From: a virus
Direction: 5' to 3' (one strand)
Virus record (IMG/VR): IMGVR_UViG_3300020185_000285
Location: 1 to 22,377 of that record
Length of the DNA: 22,377 nt
Below the pieces are notes generated by a model. That model saw nothing but the letters and a program-made list of their open reading frames with translations. It made no database searches and was not told the origin of the DNA. Shown one piece after another: positions 5,250 through 22,377 of this stretch; within the stretch, counting starts at the first letter, position 1, and every line of letters begins with the position of its first letter. A program made the translations under genes and the position numbers.

Positions 5250-5300
5250 TTTGTTCGAGCAAATGTAGTATAAATTTTTATACTAGAAAGAAAAAAGCAA
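5250..5300 (-). promoter_or_regulatory. composite promoter-operator, copy B
   Basis: Same 51-bp layout as copies A and C: TTGC (5297-5300), 11 bp, the perfect inverted repeat TAGTATAAA-AA-TTTATACTA on the minus strand (5266-5285), 2 bp, then TTTGCTCGAACAAA (5250-5263, one mismatched pair). The -7 box TACATTTG spans 5260-5267. No TTG lies at the usual -33 distance, whereas TTGC is kept 30 bp upstream of the -7 box as in the other copies. It drives the DnaA-like gene. Confidence 0.8.
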
Positions 5301-5331
5301 AAAAAAAGGCCGAGAGATGAAGCTCGGCCTT
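5297..5331 (-). terminator. intrinsic terminator of the lysis genes
   Basis: On the minus strand AGGCCGAG (8 bp), an 8-nt loop and CTCGGCCT are followed at once by a run of T (5299-5306). This is a strong rho-independent terminator, about 35 nt after the end of the spanin-like gene. Its T-tract runs directly into the TTGC of promoter module B, so it separates the lysis/tail transcript from the replication transcript. Confidence 0.85.
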
Positions 5332-10691: not shown

Positions 10692-12528
10692 GGATCACCT
10701 GTTTTAAATTGTTAGTAAAAAGCTTTCTTTGGCGTACTACAAAAGTAGCTAATCTCGTGAAAGGATTCCAATTGCAAGATACTACTTCAACAATTTCACC
10801 TGAAGGTAGCTTGACGGCTCTATCTTCAATAACGTTTTTAACGTCTGTAAGATTCATCTCTACTTGATCATATTCAAATTCATATCGCTGTGCTGAGTTT
10901 GCAGTAGGAGCAAAAGTATTCGAAATGTGAAACTCGTTGAAGAGATTAAGAGCGGTCAACTTAGTATCGTTCAAAGCGGATATTTTATTGAGCTTATAAT
11001 TTGAGTTCACATCAAGAAGAACCAACTTTGGAACAGTGATCATATCTGTATCAAGAAGCATCATTCCTGTTCTATTGTCGATAATATTTCCAAGTTGTGG
11101 ATCTATTAACTTTGGAACTGGCTCTAGATCTGCTTTGATTTTTATACCTATTACAGCAAGAGCTTTCTTGATTTTGTTGATTGTCTTTATCGCTTTGTTA
11201 ACTATATCAAGAACACCATTAGCGAGTGAAATAAGAATACTGATATTAACACCCAACACATCAAGCAAAGCATCGGCAATCTTTTCAGGAGTAGTCAGTT
11301 TTTCTTTTCTAATCGCTCGAGCAAACGGACTTTGAACTTGGTTGAGATTCTTGAGAAGCTTTAAAGTAGGATCTGTTGAAACTTTCAAATCAAGAATCGC
11401 TTGCATATTATTCCCCCTCCAGTTGTTTATCGTTTGCTTCTCAACTGAATCGTATGAGAATGAAATCAAATAGCTTGAAACAACTTCTTCAGCGTTCGTC
11501 TTCCAATTCTCAACATCGTATTGAGGAAGCTTGAATCTCGCTGTTGTCAACTTCTTATTTCTCTTGTCAATAGAAAGCTGCTTTCCATTGATTACAACCT
11601 TAGCATTGAACGTATCTTTGATTGCTCGAAGTAAGTCTCCAAATGTGCCTTGGAAATATCCGTTTTGCTCCGTTGTATTTGGAGCAAAGAAGCCCAAGAT
11701 TCTATTATCTTCAACATCTTCTGGATTTGAAAAGCTCTCTGGAATAATATGCAGCTTTGACCAAGTAGACTCAAAAAGAAAGTCGCTCGTGTATGTGAGC
11801 CCTTTAAAGTCGCAAGCAATCTCAATCAATCTATTGACTGACATTGCTGGCTTGTACTTTATCCTTTGAATGATAAGCGCAATAAGATCAAGAAGTAAAT
11901 CCACTACTGTAACAAGAAGCAGAACAGCGTAAATAATTTCAAAAATCAAATCTATTGCTCCACCTGGGGCTTCAACAACTGTTGCAATATTAGCAAGTTT
12001 TGGTTCTAATGACTTATACACTTTCACTATTTCATTAGAGCAGAAAACGATCGTGACAGTAGTGATCATTGCATCTGAGTAATTTGGAACACTGCTCACA
12101 ACATAAGGAACAAACACGAAGTCTGAATCTTTGATTTTATCAATTTCACGCAAGTAATCAAACGTGAAGCTATCAGCTATATCATTAAGCCAATCAATTT
12201 TTGCGACTGGTGTGCTATCAGCAACGACTTGATTTCTACCCCAATTAGCAGTTGATAAGTCAATGTAACCATCAAATAAATCAAGCGAGCTTCCATTTTC
12301 TTGAAGTGTGATCTTGTGCGGGACTCCTTCAAAGACTCCAGCTCCTCCACTCATGCCAAGATTAAAGTAGTCAAGCAAATCTTGAGCTTCTTTATCTACC
12401 CACTCAAAGGCCGCTATGTTGACTTGCCTATCTGTGCTGTCATTGTCGAAGTTTATCTCAATTGAAAGCTCTTGATGATTCTTAGGAACTTGAACAGACT
12501 TGCCGTTTATCTTATGCAGTTGCTTCAT
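10672..12528 (-). CDS. tail hub / baseplate-like protein with internal hydrophobic segment (618 aa)
   Basis: It directly follows the tape measure gene (ATGA overlap), the place of distal-tail or tail-hub proteins in siphophages. The N-terminus (LSIEINFDNDSTDRQVNIAAFEWVDK) and the C-terminal third (YEFEYDQVEMNLTDVKNVIE...FVVRQRKLFT) are beta-rich. Residues about 191-221 (AIDLIFEIIYAVLLLVTVVD then LLLDLIALII) form a strongly hydrophobic stretch long enough to cross a membrane. A second amphipathic region lies near 425-470 (LGVNISILISLANGVLDIV). Such segments are unusual in a soluble tail protein and may insert into the host membrane during DNA entry. The hub assignment is by position. Confidence 0.6.
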   Translation of the reverse strand: MKQLHKINGKSVQVPKNHQELSIEINFDNDSTDRQVNIAAFEWVDKEAQDLLDYFNLGMSGGAGVFEGVPHKITLQENGSSLDLFDGYIDLSTANWGRNQVVADSTPVAKIDWLNDIADSFTFDYLREIDKIKDSDFVFVPYVVSSVPNYSDAMITTVTIVFCSNEIVKVYKSLEPKLANIATVVEAPGGAIDLIFEIIYAVLLLVTVVDLLLDLIALIIQRIKYKPAMSVNRLIEIACDFKGLTYTSDFLFESTWSKLHIIPESFSNPEDVEDNRILGFFAPNTTEQNGYFQGTFGDLLRAIKDTFNAKVVINGKQLSIDKRNKKLTTARFKLPQYDVENWKTNAEEVVSSYLISFSYDSVEKQTINNWRGNNMQAILDLKVSTDPTLKLLKNLNQVQSPFARAIRKEKLTTPEKIADALLDVLGVNISILISLANGVLDIVNKAIKTINKIKKALAVIGIKIKADLEPVPKLIDPQLGNIIDNRTGMMLLDTDMITVPKLVLLDVNSNYKLNKISALNDTKLTALNLFNEFHISNTFAPTANSAQRYEFEYDQVEMNLTDVKNVIEDRAVKLPSGEIVEVVSCNWNPFTRLATFVVRQRKLFTNNLKQVILEPIGR

Positions 12529-15056
12529 ATTCTTCTCGGCTTCCTTTTATGCACTATTGTTTTCTTAATACCATCTTCAATTCTCTTATCGATCATCTGT
12601 CCGAGCTTGTCAACGTCGATCACTTGTCCGGAAGAGCTGACTGCTTTTCGAACCGAACGAAGCTCGTTCACGATATTCGTATCATTCAAAGCGTTGACTT
12701 GGTATTCTCCTTTTCGATGAGCTTCTGCCATAGCAACAAGATCTTCATTGCTCATGTTCCCAATTCTTTTGTTATCAGAGGTTTTGATCACTCGCTCACC
12801 TTTATGCACACCAATCAAATAGTCATCTCTTCCAGTGTTTCTCCACTTAGTTGCGTTATCGTCACCAACTGACTCTGTTCCTTCGTAGAATAAGCCTGAA
12901 ACAGTTTCAGCTATTGCTACTTGAGCTAGTGCTTTTCCTGCTGCTGTATTTGGATTCTCTTTTAAGTACTCTGTGAAAGCTGTCAAATATGCGAGAGTCT
13001 TCTGACGCCTCTCCTGTTTCTTTGCCTCTCTATCTCTTTGAGCCTCAAGTTCTGCGGCTTTCTTCTGCTCAAAAGCAAGTGTGTTTGCTAATCCACGATC
13101 GGCTAAGTCTTGTTGTCTCGCTAAATCTTCTTTGGCGTACCCAATTTCACGAACAATCTGTTCTTGCCTCAGAGTGCTTCGCCTGTTCATTGCTTCCTCA
13201 AAAATTGACGTCAATCGCTTTGCTTGTTCAATTGCTGCGTTTAGCTCTTCTTGACGCTTATTCTTTTTCCAGTCAGCCTCTTCGCGGTTTATGTCGTTCA
13301 GGTCGTTGATGTACTTACGCTGGATGATCAACCTTTCTGCTACTGTCAGCTTCTCATTCTGAAGCTCGAACGTTCGCTGTTGCTGCAACTTCTCACGACG
13401 CAACTCAAAGACTTGTTCTGCATTTTCTTCAAATTCAGCAGTTGCAATCTGTGAATCATACACAAGTTGATCAAGCTTCTGGTAGTCATCTATCTCTTTT
13501 AGTCTCGCTTTCTCTGCAAGCTCATCTTTTTTTCTCTTTTTTTCAGCAGCCTTCTCTGCTTCTTCTTCTCGCTTTTTCTGTAATGCAGCTGCCTCTCTGT
13601 CTCGTTTAGCTTTGTCTGCATCAATTTCACGCTGAATACGTCCGACTGCCCTAATTGCTTCGGTTCTTAGCCGTTCATTTTCTCTTTCAATTCTTGAGAT
13701 TGCCAACAACTGCTGTGCCACAAGCTTCTGACGTTCCAGATTGTTCGGGTCATTTTTCAAGAGCTGCTGAAACATTTTCAACCTTTCCCTTGCAACCTTT
13801 AACTCTGCATCTTCTCTTTCCGTGAGTATGTCAACAGCATCGCTTGCAGCCTTTACCCTTTTAGAAAATGGGAGATATGTATCGTCACGCACCTGCTTTA
13901 ATTCTTCAAGTGTGTCAATTTGCTTTGCCGCAAGCGTTTCAGCTCTGATAGCTTCAATCTCTAGGTCAGCAAGTCTATTAGTTGCTAGAACCTCAATTTC
14001 ACCTCGAATAAATGACGACATGCCAAATAATTGCTCTGTGAGAAAGGCTGCTATTTTATCTAGAGGGCCGCCACCTTTACCATCAGCGCCAAGTGATTTT
14101 GCAAAATCGTTTGCAAAACCCATTTGCACAGCTTTAAGCCTTGTTGTTGCCGATGCGAAATCAAGTGCCCCTGCTGTGCTACCTAAATATAAAGCTGTTA
14201 ATCCAGACACAGCAGCTGCAACAGCCCCAATAGGTGACAACAAAGCACGGAAATTTTTCATTAAGCCGCCAAGCGACTGACCCATGAAATTTTGTTTCTC
14301 AATTGTTTTGCCAAGCCCTTTTCGATAATTACCTACAGACCGCTGAAAGTTTCCGATGGATTCATCATTTGCTTTTACCTGCTTGTCAAGCTCTGTAATT
14401 GATTTTTTTAATGAAACTCCAAAAGGTGATTTTCGTTCTTCCGCGGTGAGCTTTCTGTATGTGTCACGAAGCTTACCAAGGTGAATACTAAGTTGATCGA
14501 AAGAAGTACCTGCAGCATTTGCTTGCTTCACCTGCTGACGCATTGTAATTCCAAGCTGTTGGTTTGCAACTGTCAATTCTTTCTGTCGCTTTGAAAGAAC
14601 AGTTGACTTTTCTACATAATTGCTTGTACTTATAAGCCCTCGATCAAGCTGCTTTGTTAGATCTTTTTGCTGCTCTGCAAGCTTTTTCAACTCAAGGCGA
14701 TATCGAACAGACAGCTTGACGTTTTGTGTAAAGCTTCCGTTCACGTCGTCAACTTGCTTATTCAGCTCTTTGTTTAGAACGATTTCTTCAGCAATTGATT
14801 CGTCAAGTTGCTTTGTTGATTCTTTGACGATATTCTGCGTCTTTGCAAGTGTCTTTGATGTTTCATTCAAGTCACGCACCTGTTCTGTGTATGCCTTTAA
14901 ATCACCACCGGACTTGATTGACCCACCCTTCATGATCTGTTGTATCACTTCAAGAACCTTGATCAGTTGCTGTTCCAGATCACGACCCTCTTTAATGACA
15001 CTAATAAGCGCGTCTGGTGCAATTATGTCTGACCGTTCAATTCGGTTTTGTGCCAT
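12525..15056 (-). CDS. tape measure protein (843 aa)
   Basis: The longest gene in the window. The product is mostly helical coiled coil (for example 60-180 and 480-660), with a highly charged block (EKKRKKDELAEKARLKEID) and one hydrophobic segment near 271-300 (LLSPIGAVAAAVSGLTALYL). This is typical of tape measure proteins that span the tail lumen. The C-terminus (GRDDYLIGVHKGERVIKTSD) resembles ends seen in Bacteroidetes phage tape measures. At roughly 0.15 nm per residue it would set a tail of about 125 nm, consistent with a siphovirus. Its start overlaps the upstream gene by 20 nt and its stop overlaps the hub-like gene. Confidence 0.85.
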   Translation of the reverse strand: MAQNRIERSDIIAPDALISVIKEGRDLEQQLIKVLEVIQQIMKGGSIKSGGDLKAYTEQVRDLNETSKTLAKTQNIVKESTKQLDESIAEEIVLNKELNKQVDDVNGSFTQNVKLSVRYRLELKKLAEQQKDLTKQLDRGLISTSNYVEKSTVLSKRQKELTVANQQLGITMRQQVKQANAAGTSFDQLSIHLGKLRDTYRKLTAEERKSPFGVSLKKSITELDKQVKANDESIGNFQRSVGNYRKGLGKTIEKQNFMGQSLGGLMKNFRALLSPIGAVAAAVSGLTALYLGSTAGALDFASATTRLKAVQMGFANDFAKSLGADGKGGGPLDKIAAFLTEQLFGMSSFIRGEIEVLATNRLADLEIEAIRAETLAAKQIDTLEELKQVRDDTYLPFSKRVKAASDAVDILTEREDAELKVARERLKMFQQLLKNDPNNLERQKLVAQQLLAISRIERENERLRTEAIRAVGRIQREIDADKAKRDREAAALQKKREEEAEKAAEKKRKKDELAEKARLKEIDDYQKLDQLVYDSQIATAEFEENAEQVFELRREKLQQQRTFELQNEKLTVAERLIIQRKYINDLNDINREEADWKKNKRQEELNAAIEQAKRLTSIFEEAMNRRSTLRQEQIVREIGYAKEDLARQQDLADRGLANTLAFEQKKAAELEAQRDREAKKQERRQKTLAYLTAFTEYLKENPNTAAGKALAQVAIAETVSGLFYEGTESVGDDNATKWRNTGRDDYLIGVHKGERVIKTSDNKRIGNMSNEDLVAMAEAHRKGEYQVNALNDTNIVNELRSVRKAVSSSGQVIDVDKLGQMIDKRIEDGIKKTIVHKRKPRRI

Positions 15057-16483: not shown

Positions 16484-17194
16484 ATGAGTAGACCGAGATT
16501 AAGCAAAGGACTCAATTGGCTTGTGGGAAGCCTAAAAGATGAGTCCAACAGAGTCCTAGTAATAGGAGACCTGCACGAACCTTTCTGCCTGGATGGATAT
16601 TTATACTTTTGCATAGAGCAAAAGGAGAAGTTCAACTGCAATAAAATTGTATTTATTGGCGATGTAATCGACAATCACTTTAGCTCATATCACGAAACAG
16701 ACGCAAACGGACTCGGAGGCTCGGACGAACTAGAATTTGCAATAAAAAAGATAGCAAGGTGGCGCGATGCCTTTCCGGTTGCTACCGTTATTATCGGAAA
16801 CCATGACCGGATCATAATGCGCAAAGCTCAAACCTCCTCAGTTCCTACCAAATGGATAAGAGAATATAAAGATGTATTGGAGGTTGATCAATGGGATTTT
16901 GTAGACAGGATCGTGATTGACGATGTGCAATACATTCATGGTGAAGCAGGAACAGCTAGAACCAAGTGCAAGTCAGATATGATGTCCACAGTTCAAGGAC
17001 ACCTACACACTCAGGCTTATACTGAATGGGTTGTCGGCCAGAAGTTTAAGGTCTTCGGCACTCAGGTGGGCTGCGGAATAGATCACAATTCGTACGCTAT
17101 GGCCTACGCTAAGAGAGGCAAAAAGCCCGCTATTGGCTGCGTTGTTGTTCTTAATGAGGGCCGAACGCCTATTAACTTACTTATGGACTTATGA
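16484..17194 (+). CDS. calcineurin-like metallophosphoesterase
   Basis: A 236-aa protein with the complete metal-site set of the calcineurin-like superfamily: GDLH (28-31, D-x-H), GDVID (59-63), GNHD (105-108), YIHG (150-153) and GHLH (172-175). It should be a soluble two-metal phosphoesterase. The substrate (nucleotide, RNA or DNA end, or protein) cannot be read from the sequence. It is on the plus strand, against nearly all other genes, and is joined by an ATGA overlap to the 67-aa gene downstream. The start ATG 16484 itself overlaps the stop of a short upstream frame ending in AIDAMRKHKLRG. The pair looks like a moron-type insert between tail genes. Confidence 0.85.
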   Translation: MSRPRLSKGLNWLVGSLKDESNRVLVIGDLHEPFCLDGYLYFCIEQKEKFNCNKIVFIGDVIDNHFSSYHETDANGLGGSDELEFAIKKIARWRDAFPVATVIIGNHDRIIMRKAQTSSVPTKWIREYKDVLEVDQWDFVDRIVIDDVQYIHGEAGTARTKCKSDMMSTVQGHLHTQAYTEWVVGQKFKVFGTQVGCGIDHNSYAMAYAKRGKKPAIGCVVVLNEGRTPINLLMDL

Positions 17195-17394
17195 TTGAAG
17201 GAGTTGCATTGTATTACACGGACGCGAAAGTCAGGAAGCTCATTGACAGAAGACTACATAAGATGTCTGTAATTTCCGCAAATCTAGGAACAGACTCTAC
17301 GGAAAAGGAAAAGAAGGAGGCGAATAAAATAATCGGAAGTCTAGAGGCTGAAATCAACAACCTATCGCCAAACTTTCTAAAATCACCAGAGTAG
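17191..17394 (+). CDS. small helical protein coupled to the metallophosphoesterase
   Basis: A 67-aa, probably helical protein (MIEGVALYYTDAKVRKLIDRRLHKMSVISA...). Its ATG overlaps the stop of the metallophosphoesterase gene (ATGA), so the two are co-translated and may act together. The middle is charged (STEKEKKEANKIIGSLEAEINNL), with no membrane segment and no recognised domain. It ends 38 nt before a bidirectional terminator and converges with the minus-strand tail genes. Confidence 0.65.
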   Translation: MIEGVALYYTDAKVRKLIDRRLHKMSVISANLGTDSTEKEKKEANKIIGSLEAEINNLSPNFLKSPE

Positions 17395-17432
17395 CTTTAT
17401 ACAGCTTTTTCTACTGTTAAAAGCAAAAAAAA

Positions 17433-17452
17433 ACTCGAAATTTCTTCCGAGT
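17433..17452. terminator. bidirectional intrinsic terminator between convergent genes
   Basis: On the minus strand ACTCGGAA, loop GAAA and TTTCGAGT form an 8-bp stem (one G-T pair) followed by TTTTTTTT. On the plus strand the same stem is followed by CTTTCTTTTTG. It lies between the plus-strand 67-aa gene and the minus-strand 51-aa gene and can stop both transcripts. Confidence 0.8.
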
Positions 17453-18595: not shown

Positions 18596-18835
18596 CTATT
18601 CGCTACCTTTAAAGGTGTCGAGCTTTAAAAGTTTGCTTAATGCTGTTTCGCTTGTCCACTCTTCTGAGCAGTCAAACTCAAAAAAGCGGTGGTGCTTGAT
18701 TGTCTTGCCTTCTTCTAAAGCCTCCACTCCGACGCTGGACTTGTTGTTCTTCCAATCGTACAGAACTTCTACTATCTCCCAAGTGAAGTCCTTTAGCTCT
18801 ATGTCCTGAAATGTTTTTAGTGCTGCTTGTTTCAT
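18596..18835 (-). CDS. hypothetical tail-region protein (79 aa)
   Basis: A small protein with alternating aromatic and charged residues (ELKDFTWEIVEVLYDWKNNK, HHRFFEFDCSEEWTSETALS), probably a compact alpha/beta fold. It has no membrane segment and no recognised family. It starts in the stop of the 704-aa gene (ATGA) and lies 41 nt before the major-tail-like gene, so it belongs to the morphogenesis group. A tail-completion or accessory role is possible from position alone. Confidence 0.6.
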   Translation of the reverse strand: MKQAALKTFQDIELKDFTWEIVEVLYDWKNNKSSVGVEALEEGKTIKHHRFFEFDCSEEWTSETALSKLLKLDTFKGSE

Positions 18836-20946
18836 ATTCCGTCTTCTATAAATGCCATGTAAATCATATTAAAGCTCGTAGGTGTTTTTACTACTATTCC
18901 ACTAGATGTACTCGTAGAGTTAGATATATAGTACTTTCCAGCAATCCCACCGCGGAAATATGTGCTTGACATAGCAATAACCCCAGTTCCAAATGCATTA
19001 TATAATCTAGGCTCTGTGGTTGTCCAGTCCTCATCTACTACCGCTATCAAATACTCTATTGGTGCTAGATACCAAGTCGCGTAAGTTTTACCATTTAGGG
19101 TTTCGCTTTTAGCTTGTGCGATAGTCCACGCATCAGCTATGGTTCTCCTATTATCGTTTCTAAAATCGACCACATCAAAGATAACCCCCTGAAGGTTGTC
19201 ATATATCAAGGTGTTTGCTGGATTTGTTCCGAATACACTTGTACCTGAGTCGTTTGTAAATCTGACTTTCGCGCCAAACTCAGGGTCATTATCTACCAAA
19301 GTGTTAAAGTGGTTAGGTGTAGCTACCGAATGGTCGATCTGCTGAATTTTACCCGTCTGCTTGTGTTCAAATGTATTTTCTTTGCTAAATGCTGCGTCTC
19401 CGTTTGCGTAACTAACACTTTGAACGCAGTTAGATGGCCTACAATAAACCGTAGGATTTGCCGCTAAACTACAAACTACATTCACAACAGAAGGCTGAGT
19501 AAACGTACTCCCATCGCTGTCTGTAACTGTGATGTCAGGAAGCGTAATCGTTCCACCACTTGCTACAGTGTTCGTGTAACTGCTGTCTGAGTTTTCGACA
19601 TTTGCATCAGGTGCTAGAACTGTGTCAGTCTCTGTGGCTTTTACTAAGTTACTTGATAAAACTGTGCCAAGAGTATTAACCACATTGACAGTTGAGTCAG
19701 CGACATTGTAAACTCCTGATCCCTCTGCTGTTAAAGTTGCACTTGCAATTAAAGTTCCATCGCTCTTGTTAATGTTGATGGTGGCGTCGGCAATGATAAT
19801 ATCCTCGCTCACATTGCTAGGAACTAACTCTGACCTAAGAACTGCATTTAAAGTGTTTTTAATTACAGCAGTAGCATCCGGAGCAGTAATAGTCGATGCA
19901 TCAGTTGCTAAGACGTTTGTGGTAGATAATGTCGTGCCATCTGTGTTGTCTAAAGTGATTACGCTGTCAGGGATTCTAAAATGTGAACCTTGTTTTGAAC
20001 CTATTAATGTGCTTCCACTCGATTGTCTTACCTCGATGTTTAAGGTTGCGCCCGAAGCTACATTGTCAAAAAATACACTATTTACATTCACCGTACCATC
20101 TGCCGCTGAACTACAAACTACATTTACAACAGAAGGCTGAGTAAACGTACTCCCATCGCTGTCTGTTACTGTAATGTCCGGAAGCGTAAGCGTTCCACCA
20201 CTTGCAACAGTATTCGTGTAACTACTGTCACTATTTTCTACCGTAGCATCTGCTGAAGGCGTACAAAGTACGTTTTGGACACTAGGCACAGAAGACGTTG
20301 AACCATCAGAATCTGTAACTGTAATATCAGGTAAGACTAAAGTATCACCAACATTTACCGTACTAGAATATGACGCATCCGAGTTCTCCACCGTGCCGCT
20401 TCCGGCTATCGTATATTCTCCACCACTTGGCACAGTTTCAATAACATCACCCGCAGCGTTCTTAATGCTTACAGGGTCGCAAGTGCCGACCTCGATAGGG
20501 CTACCACCTAAAGGAGCATTACAAGCGTCGAAAGTGTACGGGCATTTAATCTCTATCTCTACCGTCCATCCCACGCCATCAATCTCGCCCCATGTTACAG
20601 GCTCAAAAGTCGCAGATGTTTCTACCTCATACTTATTGGCAACTAAGATTTGAGGGTTCTTGAACTCAGCAAAGAAGTCCGTTAGTATTTGGAGCGTGTC
20701 AGAATAAACCTCATCCGCATCTTCAAAGTCTTCGCGTGGAATGTCGGCAATACCTAGAGTGTAGGTGTAGACGATATGCCCAGTCTCTATTTGCGTGTTC
20801 TCTAAAGACCCCATAAGTCGAGGGAATACATTGTCCTTGTCTAGGATAATATCACCCTCCTGGAAGCCTATTTGATAAGACCCCAACTGATCGTGCCGCG
20901 AGGCTATCGTGGTCAGGTCTGCGTTTACTTCGTTGTAACTTGTCAT
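18832..20946 (-). CDS. multidomain virion protein: neck/tail N-terminus, Ig-like repeats, DUF1566-like C-terminus
   Basis: A 704-aa protein. Residues 1-150 (TIASRHDQLGSYQIGFQEGD, PRLMGSLENTQIETG, VYSDTLQILTDFFAEF) resemble small neck or tail-terminator proteins of Bacteroidetes phages. Three ~43-aa repeats follow at about 187-230, 237-280 and 451-494, each with LPDITVTDSDGST and a final V-x-C. Another ~40-aa repeat lies between them (APDATAVIKNTLNAVLRSEL versus ADSTVNVVNTLGTVLSSNL). From about 525 the sequence (NGKTYATWYLAPIEYLIAVV, then YISNSTSTSSGIV) resembles the DUF1566/Lcl fold used for surface binding. It probably joins a structural base to an exposed host-binding arm. The start ATGA overlaps the stop of the frameshifted upstream gene. 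Confidence 0.6.
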   Translation of the reverse strand: MTSYNEVNADLTTIASRHDQLGSYQIGFQEGDIILDKDNVFPRLMGSLENTQIETGHIVYTYTLGIADIPREDFEDADEVYSDTLQILTDFFAEFKNPQILVANKYEVETSATFEPVTWGEIDGVGWTVEIEIKCPYTFDACNAPLGGSPIEVGTCDPVSIKNAAGDVIETVPSGGEYTIAGSGTVENSDASYSSTVNVGDTLVLPDITVTDSDGSTSSVPSVQNVLCTPSADATVENSDSSYTNTVASGGTLTLPDITVTDSDGSTFTQPSVVNVVCSSAADGTVNVNSVFFDNVASGATLNIEVRQSSGSTLIGSKQGSHFRIPDSVITLDNTDGTTLSTTNVLATDASTITAPDATAVIKNTLNAVLRSELVPSNVSEDIIIADATININKSDGTLIASATLTAEGSGVYNVADSTVNVVNTLGTVLSSNLVKATETDTVLAPDANVENSDSSYTNTVASGGTITLPDITVTDSDGSTFTQPSVVNVVCSLAANPTVYCRPSNCVQSVSYANGDAAFSKENTFEHKQTGKIQQIDHSVATPNHFNTLVDNDPEFGAKVRFTNDSGTSVFGTNPANTLIYDNLQGVIFDVVDFRNDNRRTIADAWTIAQAKSETLNGKTYATWYLAPIEYLIAVVDEDWTTTEPRLYNAFGTGVIAMSSTYFRGGIAGKYYISNSTSTSSGIVVKTPTSFNMIYMAFIEDGI
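19467..19596 (-). repeat. 130-bp repeat, copy 1 (third in the protein)
   Basis: Near-identical to 20109-20238, with about 15 differences by eye, many of them silent. It encodes residues about 451-494 of the 704-aa protein (VENSDSSYTNTVASGGTITL, PDITVTDSDGSTFTQPSVVN, VVC). The strong DNA identity suggests recent duplication or recombination between repeats. Confidence 0.85.
20109..20238 (-). repeat. 130-bp repeat, copy 2
   Basis: Second copy, exactly 642 bp from copy 1 and in the same reading frame. It encodes residues about 237-280 of the 704-aa protein with one amino-acid change (TLTL for TITL) in the repeat core. Confidence 0.85.
20259..20388 (-). repeat. 130-bp repeat, diverged copy 3 (first in the protein)
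   Basis: An older copy offset by exactly 150 bp from copy 2. It encodes VENSDASYSSTVNVGDTLVL, PDITVTDSDGSTSSVPSVQN and VLC. The protein pattern is kept, but the DNA has diverged well beyond that of copies 1 and 2. Confidence 0.7.
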
Positions 20947-21155
20947 TTCTTTACCTCTGCTTTATCCTTAGTGTACTGAAGGAAGAACATCACCTTGCTT
21001 ATTGGCTCACCCTCTACCTTTTCAATTTTTAAGATGTCTCCATTGGCGAGGGAGTGGAGAACATTAAACCAACCATATCGGGCAAGTGGACTTTCTTCTC
21101 CGACCCCGTTAAAGAGTCGAGGGAATTGTTCAACAAGCTCTGACCTAAACGCAAA
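20943..21155 (-). CDS. -1 frame extension (70 codons) of the 21640 gene
   Basis: An open frame without an ATG, GTG or TTG start before its late methionine. It encodes FAFRSELVEQFPRLFNGVGE, ESPLARYGWFNVLHSLANGD, ILKIEKVEGEPISKVMFFLQ and YTKDKAEVKK, which reads like a genuine protein. Its TGA (20943-20945) overlaps the ATG of the 704-aa gene as ATGA, the junction style of this whole operon, whereas the zero frame stops 82 nt too early. A -1 shift on the nine-T run would give a 232-aa fusion. The alternative is one T missing from the assembly: a run of ten would join the two parts directly. Confidence 0.65.
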   Translation of the reverse strand, partial: FAFRSELVEQFPRLFNGVGEESPLARYGWFNVLHSLANGDILKIEKVEGEPISKVMFFLQYTKDKAEVKK

Positions 21156-21640
21156 AAAAAAGCTAGTGCGCCCGTTGTTATGCTTATGGGTAACTCCCTG
21201 AAATGCTCCCCGTCCGTTCCCTTGTATGGCTCTATCTTATACAGCTCTTTGTACTCTTCCACAATGGGCCGATACAAAACAGCCATGACAATATGTAGGT
21301 TTTCTATAAAGTCGTCGCCCGAATAGCTGTCTATATCCACGAACTCACCCGTAGTCAGGTCCTGAAGGTTTGGAATAAAGCCATACTCCACGCCTTGCCA
21401 TGTGAATCGCTGCTGAAAAGGCTGCTCCTGTTGTAGGACTGCCGCAATCTTAGCCGACAACTCGCTCAACTGCCTTACAGGAATCCTATCCAAAGCGTCA
21501 TAACCCGCGCCTGTGATAGCTTTAATTATCTTCTTTGCCTTCCATGTATCGTCTAGGCTTTCATCGTTTCCGATATTAAAGCATTCGACATATTTACTTA
21601 GCGGTATCTCGTCCGCTTTCGTTGGTATTATCACCTCCAT
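21029..21640 (-). CDS. morphogenesis protein, zero-frame product (203 aa) of a probable frameshifted gene
   Basis: It starts at ATG 21640 (MEVIIPTKADEIPLSKYVEC). The first ~160 residues contain YGFIPNLQDLTTGEFVDIDS, LHIVMAVLYRPIVEEYKEL and YKIEPYKGTDGEHFRELPIS, a pattern I recall from conserved Bacteroidetes phage proteins without a firm function. At codons 160-162 the frame crosses nine T. Reading on in frame gives 41 more residues and a stop at 21029. A -1 shift gives a different 70-residue end (see 20943-21155). The arrangement recalls tail assembly chaperones of the G/GT type, but here it lies next to the terminase rather than the tape measure gene. The function is inferred. Confidence 0.6.
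   Translation of the reverse strand: MEVIIPTKADEIPLSKYVECFNIGNDESLDDTWKAKKIIKAITGAGYDALDRIPVRQLSELSAKIAAVLQQEQPFQQRFTWQGVEYGFIPNLQDLTTGEFVDIDSYSGDDFIENLHIVMAVLYRPIVEEYKELYKIEPYKGTDGEHFRELPISITTGALAFFLRLGQSLLNNSLDSLTGSEKKVHLPDMVGLMFSTPSPMETS
21153..21164 (-). promoter_or_regulatory. slippery site for -1 frameshift
   Basis: The minus strand reads GCTTTTTTTTTG (nine T, 21153-21161). In the zero frame it is GCT TTT TTT TTG, so T TTT TTT is a correctly phased X XXY YYZ heptamer. An imperfect hairpin (CTCGAC with GTCGGAG, 21098-21121) lies about 34 nt downstream, farther than usual for a stimulator. Confidence 0.55.
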
Positions 21641-21713: not shown

Positions 21714-21729
21714 TTCTTGAATAAAAAAA

Positions 21730-21760
21730 CCCCCGAAAGGGAAGGACTCCGAGACGGGGG
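21730..21760 (-). terminator. intrinsic terminator between terminase and morphogenesis genes
   Basis: On the minus strand CCCCCG and CGGGGG form a GC-only outer stem. An inner part containing GGAG/CTTCC-type pairing is possible. A run of seven T follows (21723-21729). It lies about 140 nt after the terminase stop and about 100 nt after the promoter at 21869-21898. Confidence 0.8.
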
Positions 21761-21898: not shown

Positions 21899-22377
21899 CT
21901 ACCTAACGGCGTAAACGCCGCGCTTGTTCGTGTTCAGCTTGTTCAAAGCAACGTAGCGCAGGGCATCAATGGCGTGGTTCATGTAGTCGACGGGCTTGTT
22001 CAAGCTCTCTCCATTCCTGTCAGTCTGCCACTTATAAGAGCGCAACTCCTTCAAAAGGTTCACGCTTCCAGGATCAACTACAAGCTCGTACCTCTTCAGT
22101 ATATCAATGCTCTGCCTAATAGAGTCTGGACCTTTCCTTGCGGGTGAAGCTCTGAAGCCTCCTGGAATCCTCTTAATCTCTTCAATGCTCTTTGGCTCTG
22201 CTGAGTCGCATACAACTTCTTCTTGTCTGTCTATGTCTAACCTCTGCACTATGTCGGGGTTCGTTAAGCCATGCTGATATAGCAACTCGCGAACGTGAAG
22301 CCTTCCGTTTGACTTAGCGACCTCAACGACGGCGGTAGGGTCATTGGTGAATCCAAAGTCAAGACCAAGCCCTACCC
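21899..22377 (-). CDS. terL: terminase large subunit, C-terminal nuclease domain, partial at right edge
   Basis: The frame is open from the right edge to TAG 21899, about 158 codons. A TTG-start reading at 22285 is not a real start. It shows the RNase H-like nuclease domain of TerL. The first catalytic Asp is in GLDFGFTNDPTAVVEV (codon 22358-22360), the second in VVCDSAEPKSIEEI (22205-22207) and the third in NHAIDALRYVAL (21965-21967). The ATPase half lies beyond the window. TerL cuts concatemeric phage DNA and drives its packaging into the prohead. It is followed not by a portal gene but by a promoter-terminator gap and a probable morphogenesis gene. Confidence 0.9.
   Translation of the reverse strand, partial: VGLGLDFGFTNDPTAVVEVAKSNGRLHVRELLYQHGLTNPDIVQRLDIDRQEEVVCDSAEPKSIEEIKRIPGGFRASPARKGPDSIRQSIDILKRYELVVDPGSVNLLKELRSYKWQTDRNGESLNKPVDYMNHAIDALRYVALNKLNTNKRGVYAVR

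What the first reader, a model, noticed from the sequence alone, without database searches (positions are those of the whole stretch)
20943..21640. Likely programmed -1 frameshift (T TTT TTT) making a 232-aa fusion next to the terminase gene
The nine-T run contains a correctly phased slippery heptamer. The -1 frame beyond it is open for 70 codons, reads like real protein, has no start codon of its own, and ends with a TGA overlapping the next ATG as ATGA, the junction used throughout this operon. The zero frame also stays open for 41 codons, so two products with different ends are possible, as in G/GT tail chaperones. The location by the terminase gene is unusual for that system.
Basis: partly seen in the sequence, partly recalled or inferred. 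Interest (0 to 1): 0.75.

Follow-up and report, generated by a model that had tools for sequence, protein, structure and literature searches.

The report
Conserved T9-10 frame switch, phage chaperone
A run of nine or ten T's inside a tail-assembly gene of aquatic bacterial viruses lets one gene make a short and a long protein; the run is kept in every relative found, probably because the RNA-copying enzyme slips on it.

Summary
An A9 (T9 on the coding strand) lies at 21153-21161 inside a 203-codon ORF. The T TTT TTT heptamer is in phase. The -1 frame stays open to the ATGA junction at 20943, giving a 232-aa fusion, and has no start codon of its own. It is not a sequencing error. Three near-identical contigs from other metagenomes and the isolated Nonlabens phages P12024L/S show the same T9. 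129 viral loci (23 lineages under 60% identity) all carry an uninterrupted T9 or T10 at this point, in all three codon phases, with a homologous C-terminal extension in the -1 frame. In two loci that are one-T variants of near-identical siblings, the extension lies in another frame. The longest open relatives show the order TerS-TerL-[this gene]-tail genes-tape measure-head genes. AlphaFold/Foldseek and weak profile hits point to tail-assembly chaperones. I read it as a G/GT-type chaperone family of unknown-function PHROGs. T8 is never seen, there is no downstream RNA structure, and the third frame stops early. This favours transcriptional slippage over ribosomal frameshifting, but nothing here proves it. 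New variant of a known kind.

The parts
21029..21640 (-). zero-frame ORF, 203 aa: the 'G-like' short product (conserved N domain up to the FF motif plus a 41-codon tail)
   Evidence: phrog_32199 E=5e-14 over residues 1-167; homologues in 129 loci
21153..21161 (-). T9 run (A9 on + strand), slippage site; in-phase T TTT TTT heptamer begins at 21161
   Evidence: T9/T10 in 129/129 relatives
20943..21160 (-). -1 frame extension (about 70 codons, stop TGA 20945-20943), the 'T-like' domain of the 232-aa fusion
   Evidence: phrog_38404 E=0.0037, E=1.2e-5 in the record search; alignment A6 of 28 sequences
21145..21147 (-). third-frame (+1) TAG shortly after the run; an early third-frame stop occurs in 22 of 23 lineages
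   Evidence: sequence
18832..20946 (-). next gene (704 aa; first ~150 aa homologous to the short gene that follows in relatives, rest repetitive); its ATG overlaps the extension's TGA
21899..22375 (-). large terminase subunit, C-terminal part (cut by the contig end)
   Evidence: Pfam Terminase_3C E=2e-17; phrog_6672 E=2.5e-32
12525..15056 (-). tape-measure-like protein (843 aa), further downstream in the same direction
   Evidence: weak: phrog_14476 virion structural 6e-10 and phrog_339 tape measure 2e-4

Best explanation
The gene encodes a tail-assembly-chaperone-like protein in two forms. Standard reading gives a short 'G' form. A fixed minority of messages or ribosomes change to the -1 frame at the T9 run and add a conserved 70-residue 'T' domain (232 aa). 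Shown by comparison: the site, the extension and their frame relation are conserved in 23 divergent lineages. Inferred from fold, weak profile hits and gene order: chaperone function (short form on the tape measure, long form linking to the tail tube, as in lambda G/GT). Inferred from run length, phases, lack of stimulators and third-frame stops: the switch is mainly transcriptional slippage, RNA polymerase adding one U over the T9-10 run (its 9-10 bp RNA-DNA hybrid can realign), with ribosomal -1 slippage possibly contributing.
For: 129/129 loci have T9 (33) or T10 (96), in all three codon phases; the tree needs at least 9 changes of run class and 5 changes of length, always between 9 and 10. 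The extension is homologous throughout, and profile A3 finds both the N part and the -1-frame part in 10/10 records. Isolated phages P12024L/S have the run, and their annotated 55-aa ORF (gp41/gp39) is the extension. Given the heptamer, amino acids and codon usage, T>=9 in all of 18 lineages has P of about 2e-4 (lineages treated as independent). No downstream structure, z about 0. Third-frame stop within 6 codons in 22/23 lineages against 15.2 expected, P=4e-4 (not corrected for relatedness). Gene order TerL-[gene]-tail genes-tape measure. Foldseek: annotated tail assembly chaperones at prob 0.99 (E 8.5e-3) and 1.00 (E 0.12, 75 columns, target-normalised TM 0.76). phrog_166 'tail protein' 8e-4 and Pfam Phage_TAC_7 0.017. 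Slippage is efficient at 9 A/T and the hybrid is 9-10 bp (PMC5009743).
Against: No transcript or protein data. The heptamer is also in phase in every relative, so ribosomal frameshifting would work. Much of the run is forced by Phe codons in two frames. The phase/residue association is not significant after correction for relatedness, and the third-frame stop partly follows from zero-frame coding of Leu/Ile. Profile hits to chaperone families are below curated cut-offs, and no PDB fold matches. The gene is not next to the tape-measure gene.
Confidence: 0.58

Rival explanations
1. Programmed -1 ribosomal frameshifting at T TTT TTT (or T TTT TTG), exactly as in lambda G/GT; the long run merely offers overlapping slippery heptamers and two-frame Phe codons.
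For: The heptamer is in phase in all lineages examined; the extension is in the -1 frame in 127 of 129 loci; known tail chaperones use this mechanism (PMC5009743; PMC3711429 measured 6-7% for an HK97-like cluster).
Against: T6-T8 would suffice but is never seen; no downstream structure and, by inspection, no upstream Shine-Dalgarno-like element; early third-frame stops are not explained; one-T variants L055 and L072 would not keep the product pattern.
Confidence: 0.3
2. The recoding is real but the protein is not a tail-assembly chaperone; it is another two-form virion or assembly factor of these phages.
For: PHROGs 32199 and 38404 are of unknown function; no PDB fold match; not adjacent to the tape-measure gene.
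Against: Fold and weak profile matches all point to tail chaperones; it opens the tail module; -1 shifted C-terminal extension is the hallmark of that class.
Confidence: 0.2
3. Sequencing or assembly error: the true sequence has ten T and is one plain ORF, or the gene is a decaying pseudogene.
For: Homopolymers are error-prone; L055 has T10 and reads straight through.
Against: T9 in four independent metagenomes and in two isolated, separately sequenced phages; T9/T10 with the extension out of frame in 127 of 129 loci; both frames are conserved.
Confidence: 0.01
4. Two separate genes: the downstream part is translated from its own start, as annotated in the Nonlabens phages.
For: GenBank annotates gp41/gp39 of P12024L/S as separate 55-aa ORFs.
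Against: Only 2 of 86 loci have an ATG, and 5 of 86 any ATG/GTG/TTG, between the run and the conserved core; conservation of the -1 frame begins at the run itself.
Confidence: 0.02

Closest known systems
Lambda gpG/gpGT and other frameshift-extended tail assembly chaperones (Xu, Hendrix and Duda 2004; review PMC5009743)
   Different: Directly after TerL and several genes before the tape measure; T9-10 run in every relative instead of varied heptamers; no significant sequence match to curated chaperone families.
Programmed transcriptional slippage at A9/T9-10 runs (Thermus dnaX, Shigella mxiE/spa13, IS elements; PMC1088944, PMC5009743)
   Same: Uninterrupted run of at least 9, length and not phase conserved, no need for mRNA structure, alternative C-terminus conserved.
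   Different: Here in a phage tail gene; I found no such case in the papers searched. Slippage itself is not measured.
Nonlabens (Persicivirga) phages P12024L gp40-41 and P12024S gp38-39; PHROGs 32199 and 38404
   Same: True homologues: about 25% identical N part, T9 run, extension in -1 frame, directly after TerL.
   Different: Annotated as two unrelated hypothetical proteins; recoding not noted in the record.

Membership tests
[quoted passage not shown]
Frameshift tail assembly chaperone (G/GT) | Gene between major tail protein and tape measure gene | tested here: not met
   It lies directly after TerL, upstream of short tail genes and about 5 genes before the tape measure; in the window the tape measure is 6 kb away
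Frameshift tail assembly chaperone (G/GT) | Sequence or profile similarity to known chaperone families | tested here: inconclusive
   Phage_TAC_7 E=0.017 in 2 of 12 members, below cut-off; phrog_166 'tail protein' E=8e-4
Frameshift tail assembly chaperone (G/GT) | Chaperone-like fold | tested here: inconclusive
   Model pLDDT 81; two annotated tail assembly chaperones in BFVD at E 8.5e-3 and 0.12; no PDB match
Frameshift tail assembly chaperone (G/GT) | Short form binds tape measure, extension binds tube protein | not testable with these tools
   needs biochemistry
Programmed transcriptional slippage | Uninterrupted A or T run of at least 9, conserved | tested here: met
   129/129, T9 or T10, all three phases
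Programmed transcriptional slippage | mRNA length heterogeneity at the run | not testable with these tools
   no transcript data
Programmed transcriptional slippage | Host or phage genomes avoid such runs in coding DNA (sign that the polymerase slips) | tested here: inconclusive
   A>=9: 6 found, 20.3 expected; T>=9: 3 outside the site, expectation about 3
Programmed -1 ribosomal frameshifting | In-phase X XXY YYZ heptamer | tested here: met
   T TTT TTT in phase in all lineages examined
Programmed -1 ribosomal frameshifting | Downstream stem-loop or pseudoknot stimulator (not essential in lambda) | tested here: not met
   energies no better than shuffles in 18 lineages; pseudoknots not tested; upstream Shine-Dalgarno-like elements only inspected by eye

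The most novel reading that the evidence does not exclude
A large, undescribed family of aquatic phages sets the ratio of its two tail-chaperone forms by RNA-polymerase slippage at a T9-10 run rather than by ribosomal frameshifting; an independent solution to the G/GT problem.
Probability: 0.5. Interest if true: 0.75.

Novelty: new variant of a known kind. Interest (0 to 1): 0.62.

Why it matters
Ribosomal recoding in tail chaperones is well known. A family in which the run length (at least 9) rather than a heptamer appears to be conserved would show that phages reach the same two-protein output at the transcription step, as Thermus dnaX does for E. coli dnaX. It gives a probable function to two unknown PHROGs, corrects the annotation of Nonlabens phages P12024L/S, and means that gene callers truncate this protein in more than a hundred viral contigs. 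It can be tested at once with cultured phages.

Tried and rejected
Sequencing error and pseudogene: rejected by independent contigs and isolates. Separate downstream gene: rejected, no conserved start codon. Downstream RNA stimulator: none. Test that the doubly synonymous T at run position 8 is selected: P=0.12, not informative. Phylogenetically paired test of phase against residue 6: too few independent pairs. Arg AGR preference after the run: suggestive, but confounded with zero-frame Leu. PDB sequence and fold searches: nothing. One scan of cellular genome contigs found no relative, so no host is named from prophages. Two alignments that mixed N and C fragments were misaligned by MAFFT and dropped (A4, A8). 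Flavobacterium phage 6H was looked at as a structural relative; its frame relation is not a simple -1 shift and was left open.

Full report
What is there. The window is a 22.4 kb viral contig whose main gene cluster runs on the minus strand. Downstream of the C-terminal part of the large terminase gene (21899-22375; Terminase_3C E=2e-17) lies a 203-codon ORF, 21640..21029. At codons 160-163 it holds GCT TTT TTT TTG, nine T's at 21161..21153. The -1 frame is open from the run to TGA 20945-20943, which overlaps the ATG of the next gene as ATGA.

It is real and conserved. Three other metagenomes hold the same region, with T9 and at least 96% identity over the fusion. The isolated Nonlabens phages P12024L and P12024S carry a 25% identical homologue directly after their terminase, with T9 (CTT TTT TTT TAT) and an open -1 frame that runs into an ORF annotated as a separate hypothetical protein. 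Profile-guided scans with patterns outside the run gave further relatives. In all, 129 loci were analysed. T9 occurs in 33 and T10 in 96, with run starts at all three codon positions and nothing shorter or longer. Among 127 of them there are 23 lineages under 60% identity. In each of these 127 the extension is in the -1 frame and aligns as one protein domain (FF..FR..L...Y..LF......KWGWY...LA..D.LKIE.V......L..L.Y.KDK). The other two loci are one-T variants: L055 (T10) against L006 (T9), and L072 (T9) against L047 (T10), each pair at least 99.6% identical over 1400 bases. An independent search with profile A3 found the N part and the -1 part in ten of ten records. The PHROG library itself holds the two halves as separate families, 32199 and 38404.

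Both ends are used. The -1 frame shows normal coding conservation. Where the frames overlap, third positions of the -1 frame vary less than further downstream in the two largest informative clusters (0.189 against 0.319; 0.186 against 0.281; not so in the other two), which fits selection on the zero frame as well. There is no start codon for the extension in 81 of 86 loci.

What the protein does. The relatives with long contigs show a fixed order: TerS, TerL, this gene, a ~155-aa gene, a ~190-aa gene (weak match to a tail completion/neck family), two long genes, a tape-measure-like gene, head protease, a gene of scaffold size, a ~330-aa gene in the place of the major capsid gene, portal (the scaffold and capsid labels are by position and size). 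The gene therefore opens a tail module that follows TerL. An AlphaFold model of the natural ten-T fusion from L055 is good (pLDDT 81). It has no PDB neighbour but matches 40 viral proteins in BFVD at E<=0.001, nearly all unnamed. The named ones just beyond that threshold include two tail assembly chaperones. Weak profile hits agree: phrog_166 tail protein and Phage_TAC_7. I infer a G/GT-type chaperone. The gene fails the usual position test (between tube and tape-measure genes), so I say it works like G/GT and do not file it as a proven member.

How the frame is changed. Ribosomal -1 slippage at T TTT TTT is possible in every lineage. Four features fit RNA-polymerase slippage better. (1) The run is never under nine, although six or seven T's would serve the ribosome. 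Given heptamer, amino acids and codon usage, T>=9 in all 18 lineages first examined has a probability of about 2e-4. In lineages where the run starts at codon position 3 the next residue is always Phe (TTT), whereas Leu is common where it starts at position 2, which keeps the total at nine (Fisher p=0.0065; not significant after correction for relatedness). (2) The run class changed at least nine times on the tree, with length only between 9 and 10. (3) No downstream RNA structure exceeds shuffles. (4) The third frame, reached by polymerase slippage but not by a -1 ribosomal shift, stops within six codons in 22 of 23 lineages against 15.2 expected (P=4e-4), though zero-frame constraints explain part of this. 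Bacterial RNA polymerase has a 9-10 bp hybrid and slips efficiently at nine A or T (PMC5009743; PMC1088944). I put slippage at about 0.6, pure ribosomal frameshifting at about 0.3, with both together possible. No transcript was available.

Literature. Searches of the held library found ribosomal frameshifting in tail chaperones and transcriptional slippage in IS elements, type III and type VI secretion genes and potyviruses, but no phage tail chaperone using slippage. The library is incomplete, so this is not proof of novelty.

Noticed in passing
21722-21760 (minus strand): A GC-rich inverted repeat followed by T's lies between TerL and this gene and looks like a terminator, so the gene may start its own transcript.
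   Followed up: no
16484-17394 (+): Two genes on the opposite strand within the minus-strand cluster; the first is a metallophosphatase-like protein 62% identical to P12024L gp17.
   Followed up: partly
18832-20946 (-): The 704-aa gene fuses a ~150-aa domain (a separate short gene in relatives) to repeated Ig-like segments.
   Followed up: partly
5299-5307 and 17425-17433: Two further A9 runs in the window, both outside the main ORFs.
   Followed up: no
L055 vs L006; L072 vs L047: Near-identical contigs that differ by one T in the run, which permutes the frames; natural variants or assembly effects.
   Followed up: partly
L174-L215: In this subfamily the zero frame stays open about 80 codons past the run, nearly as far as the -1 frame, so the short form may have a long alternative tail.
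   Followed up: no
L168:9500-10927 (-), Flavobacterium phage 6H: A fold relative (AGN89393) ends near T TTT TTC, and an unannotated ORF follows in another frame before the tape-measure gene; a possible unnoticed recoding site.
   Followed up: partly
related loci, coding DNA: A-runs of 9 or more are threefold rarer in genes than codon-shuffled expectation (6 against 20.3).
   Followed up: yes
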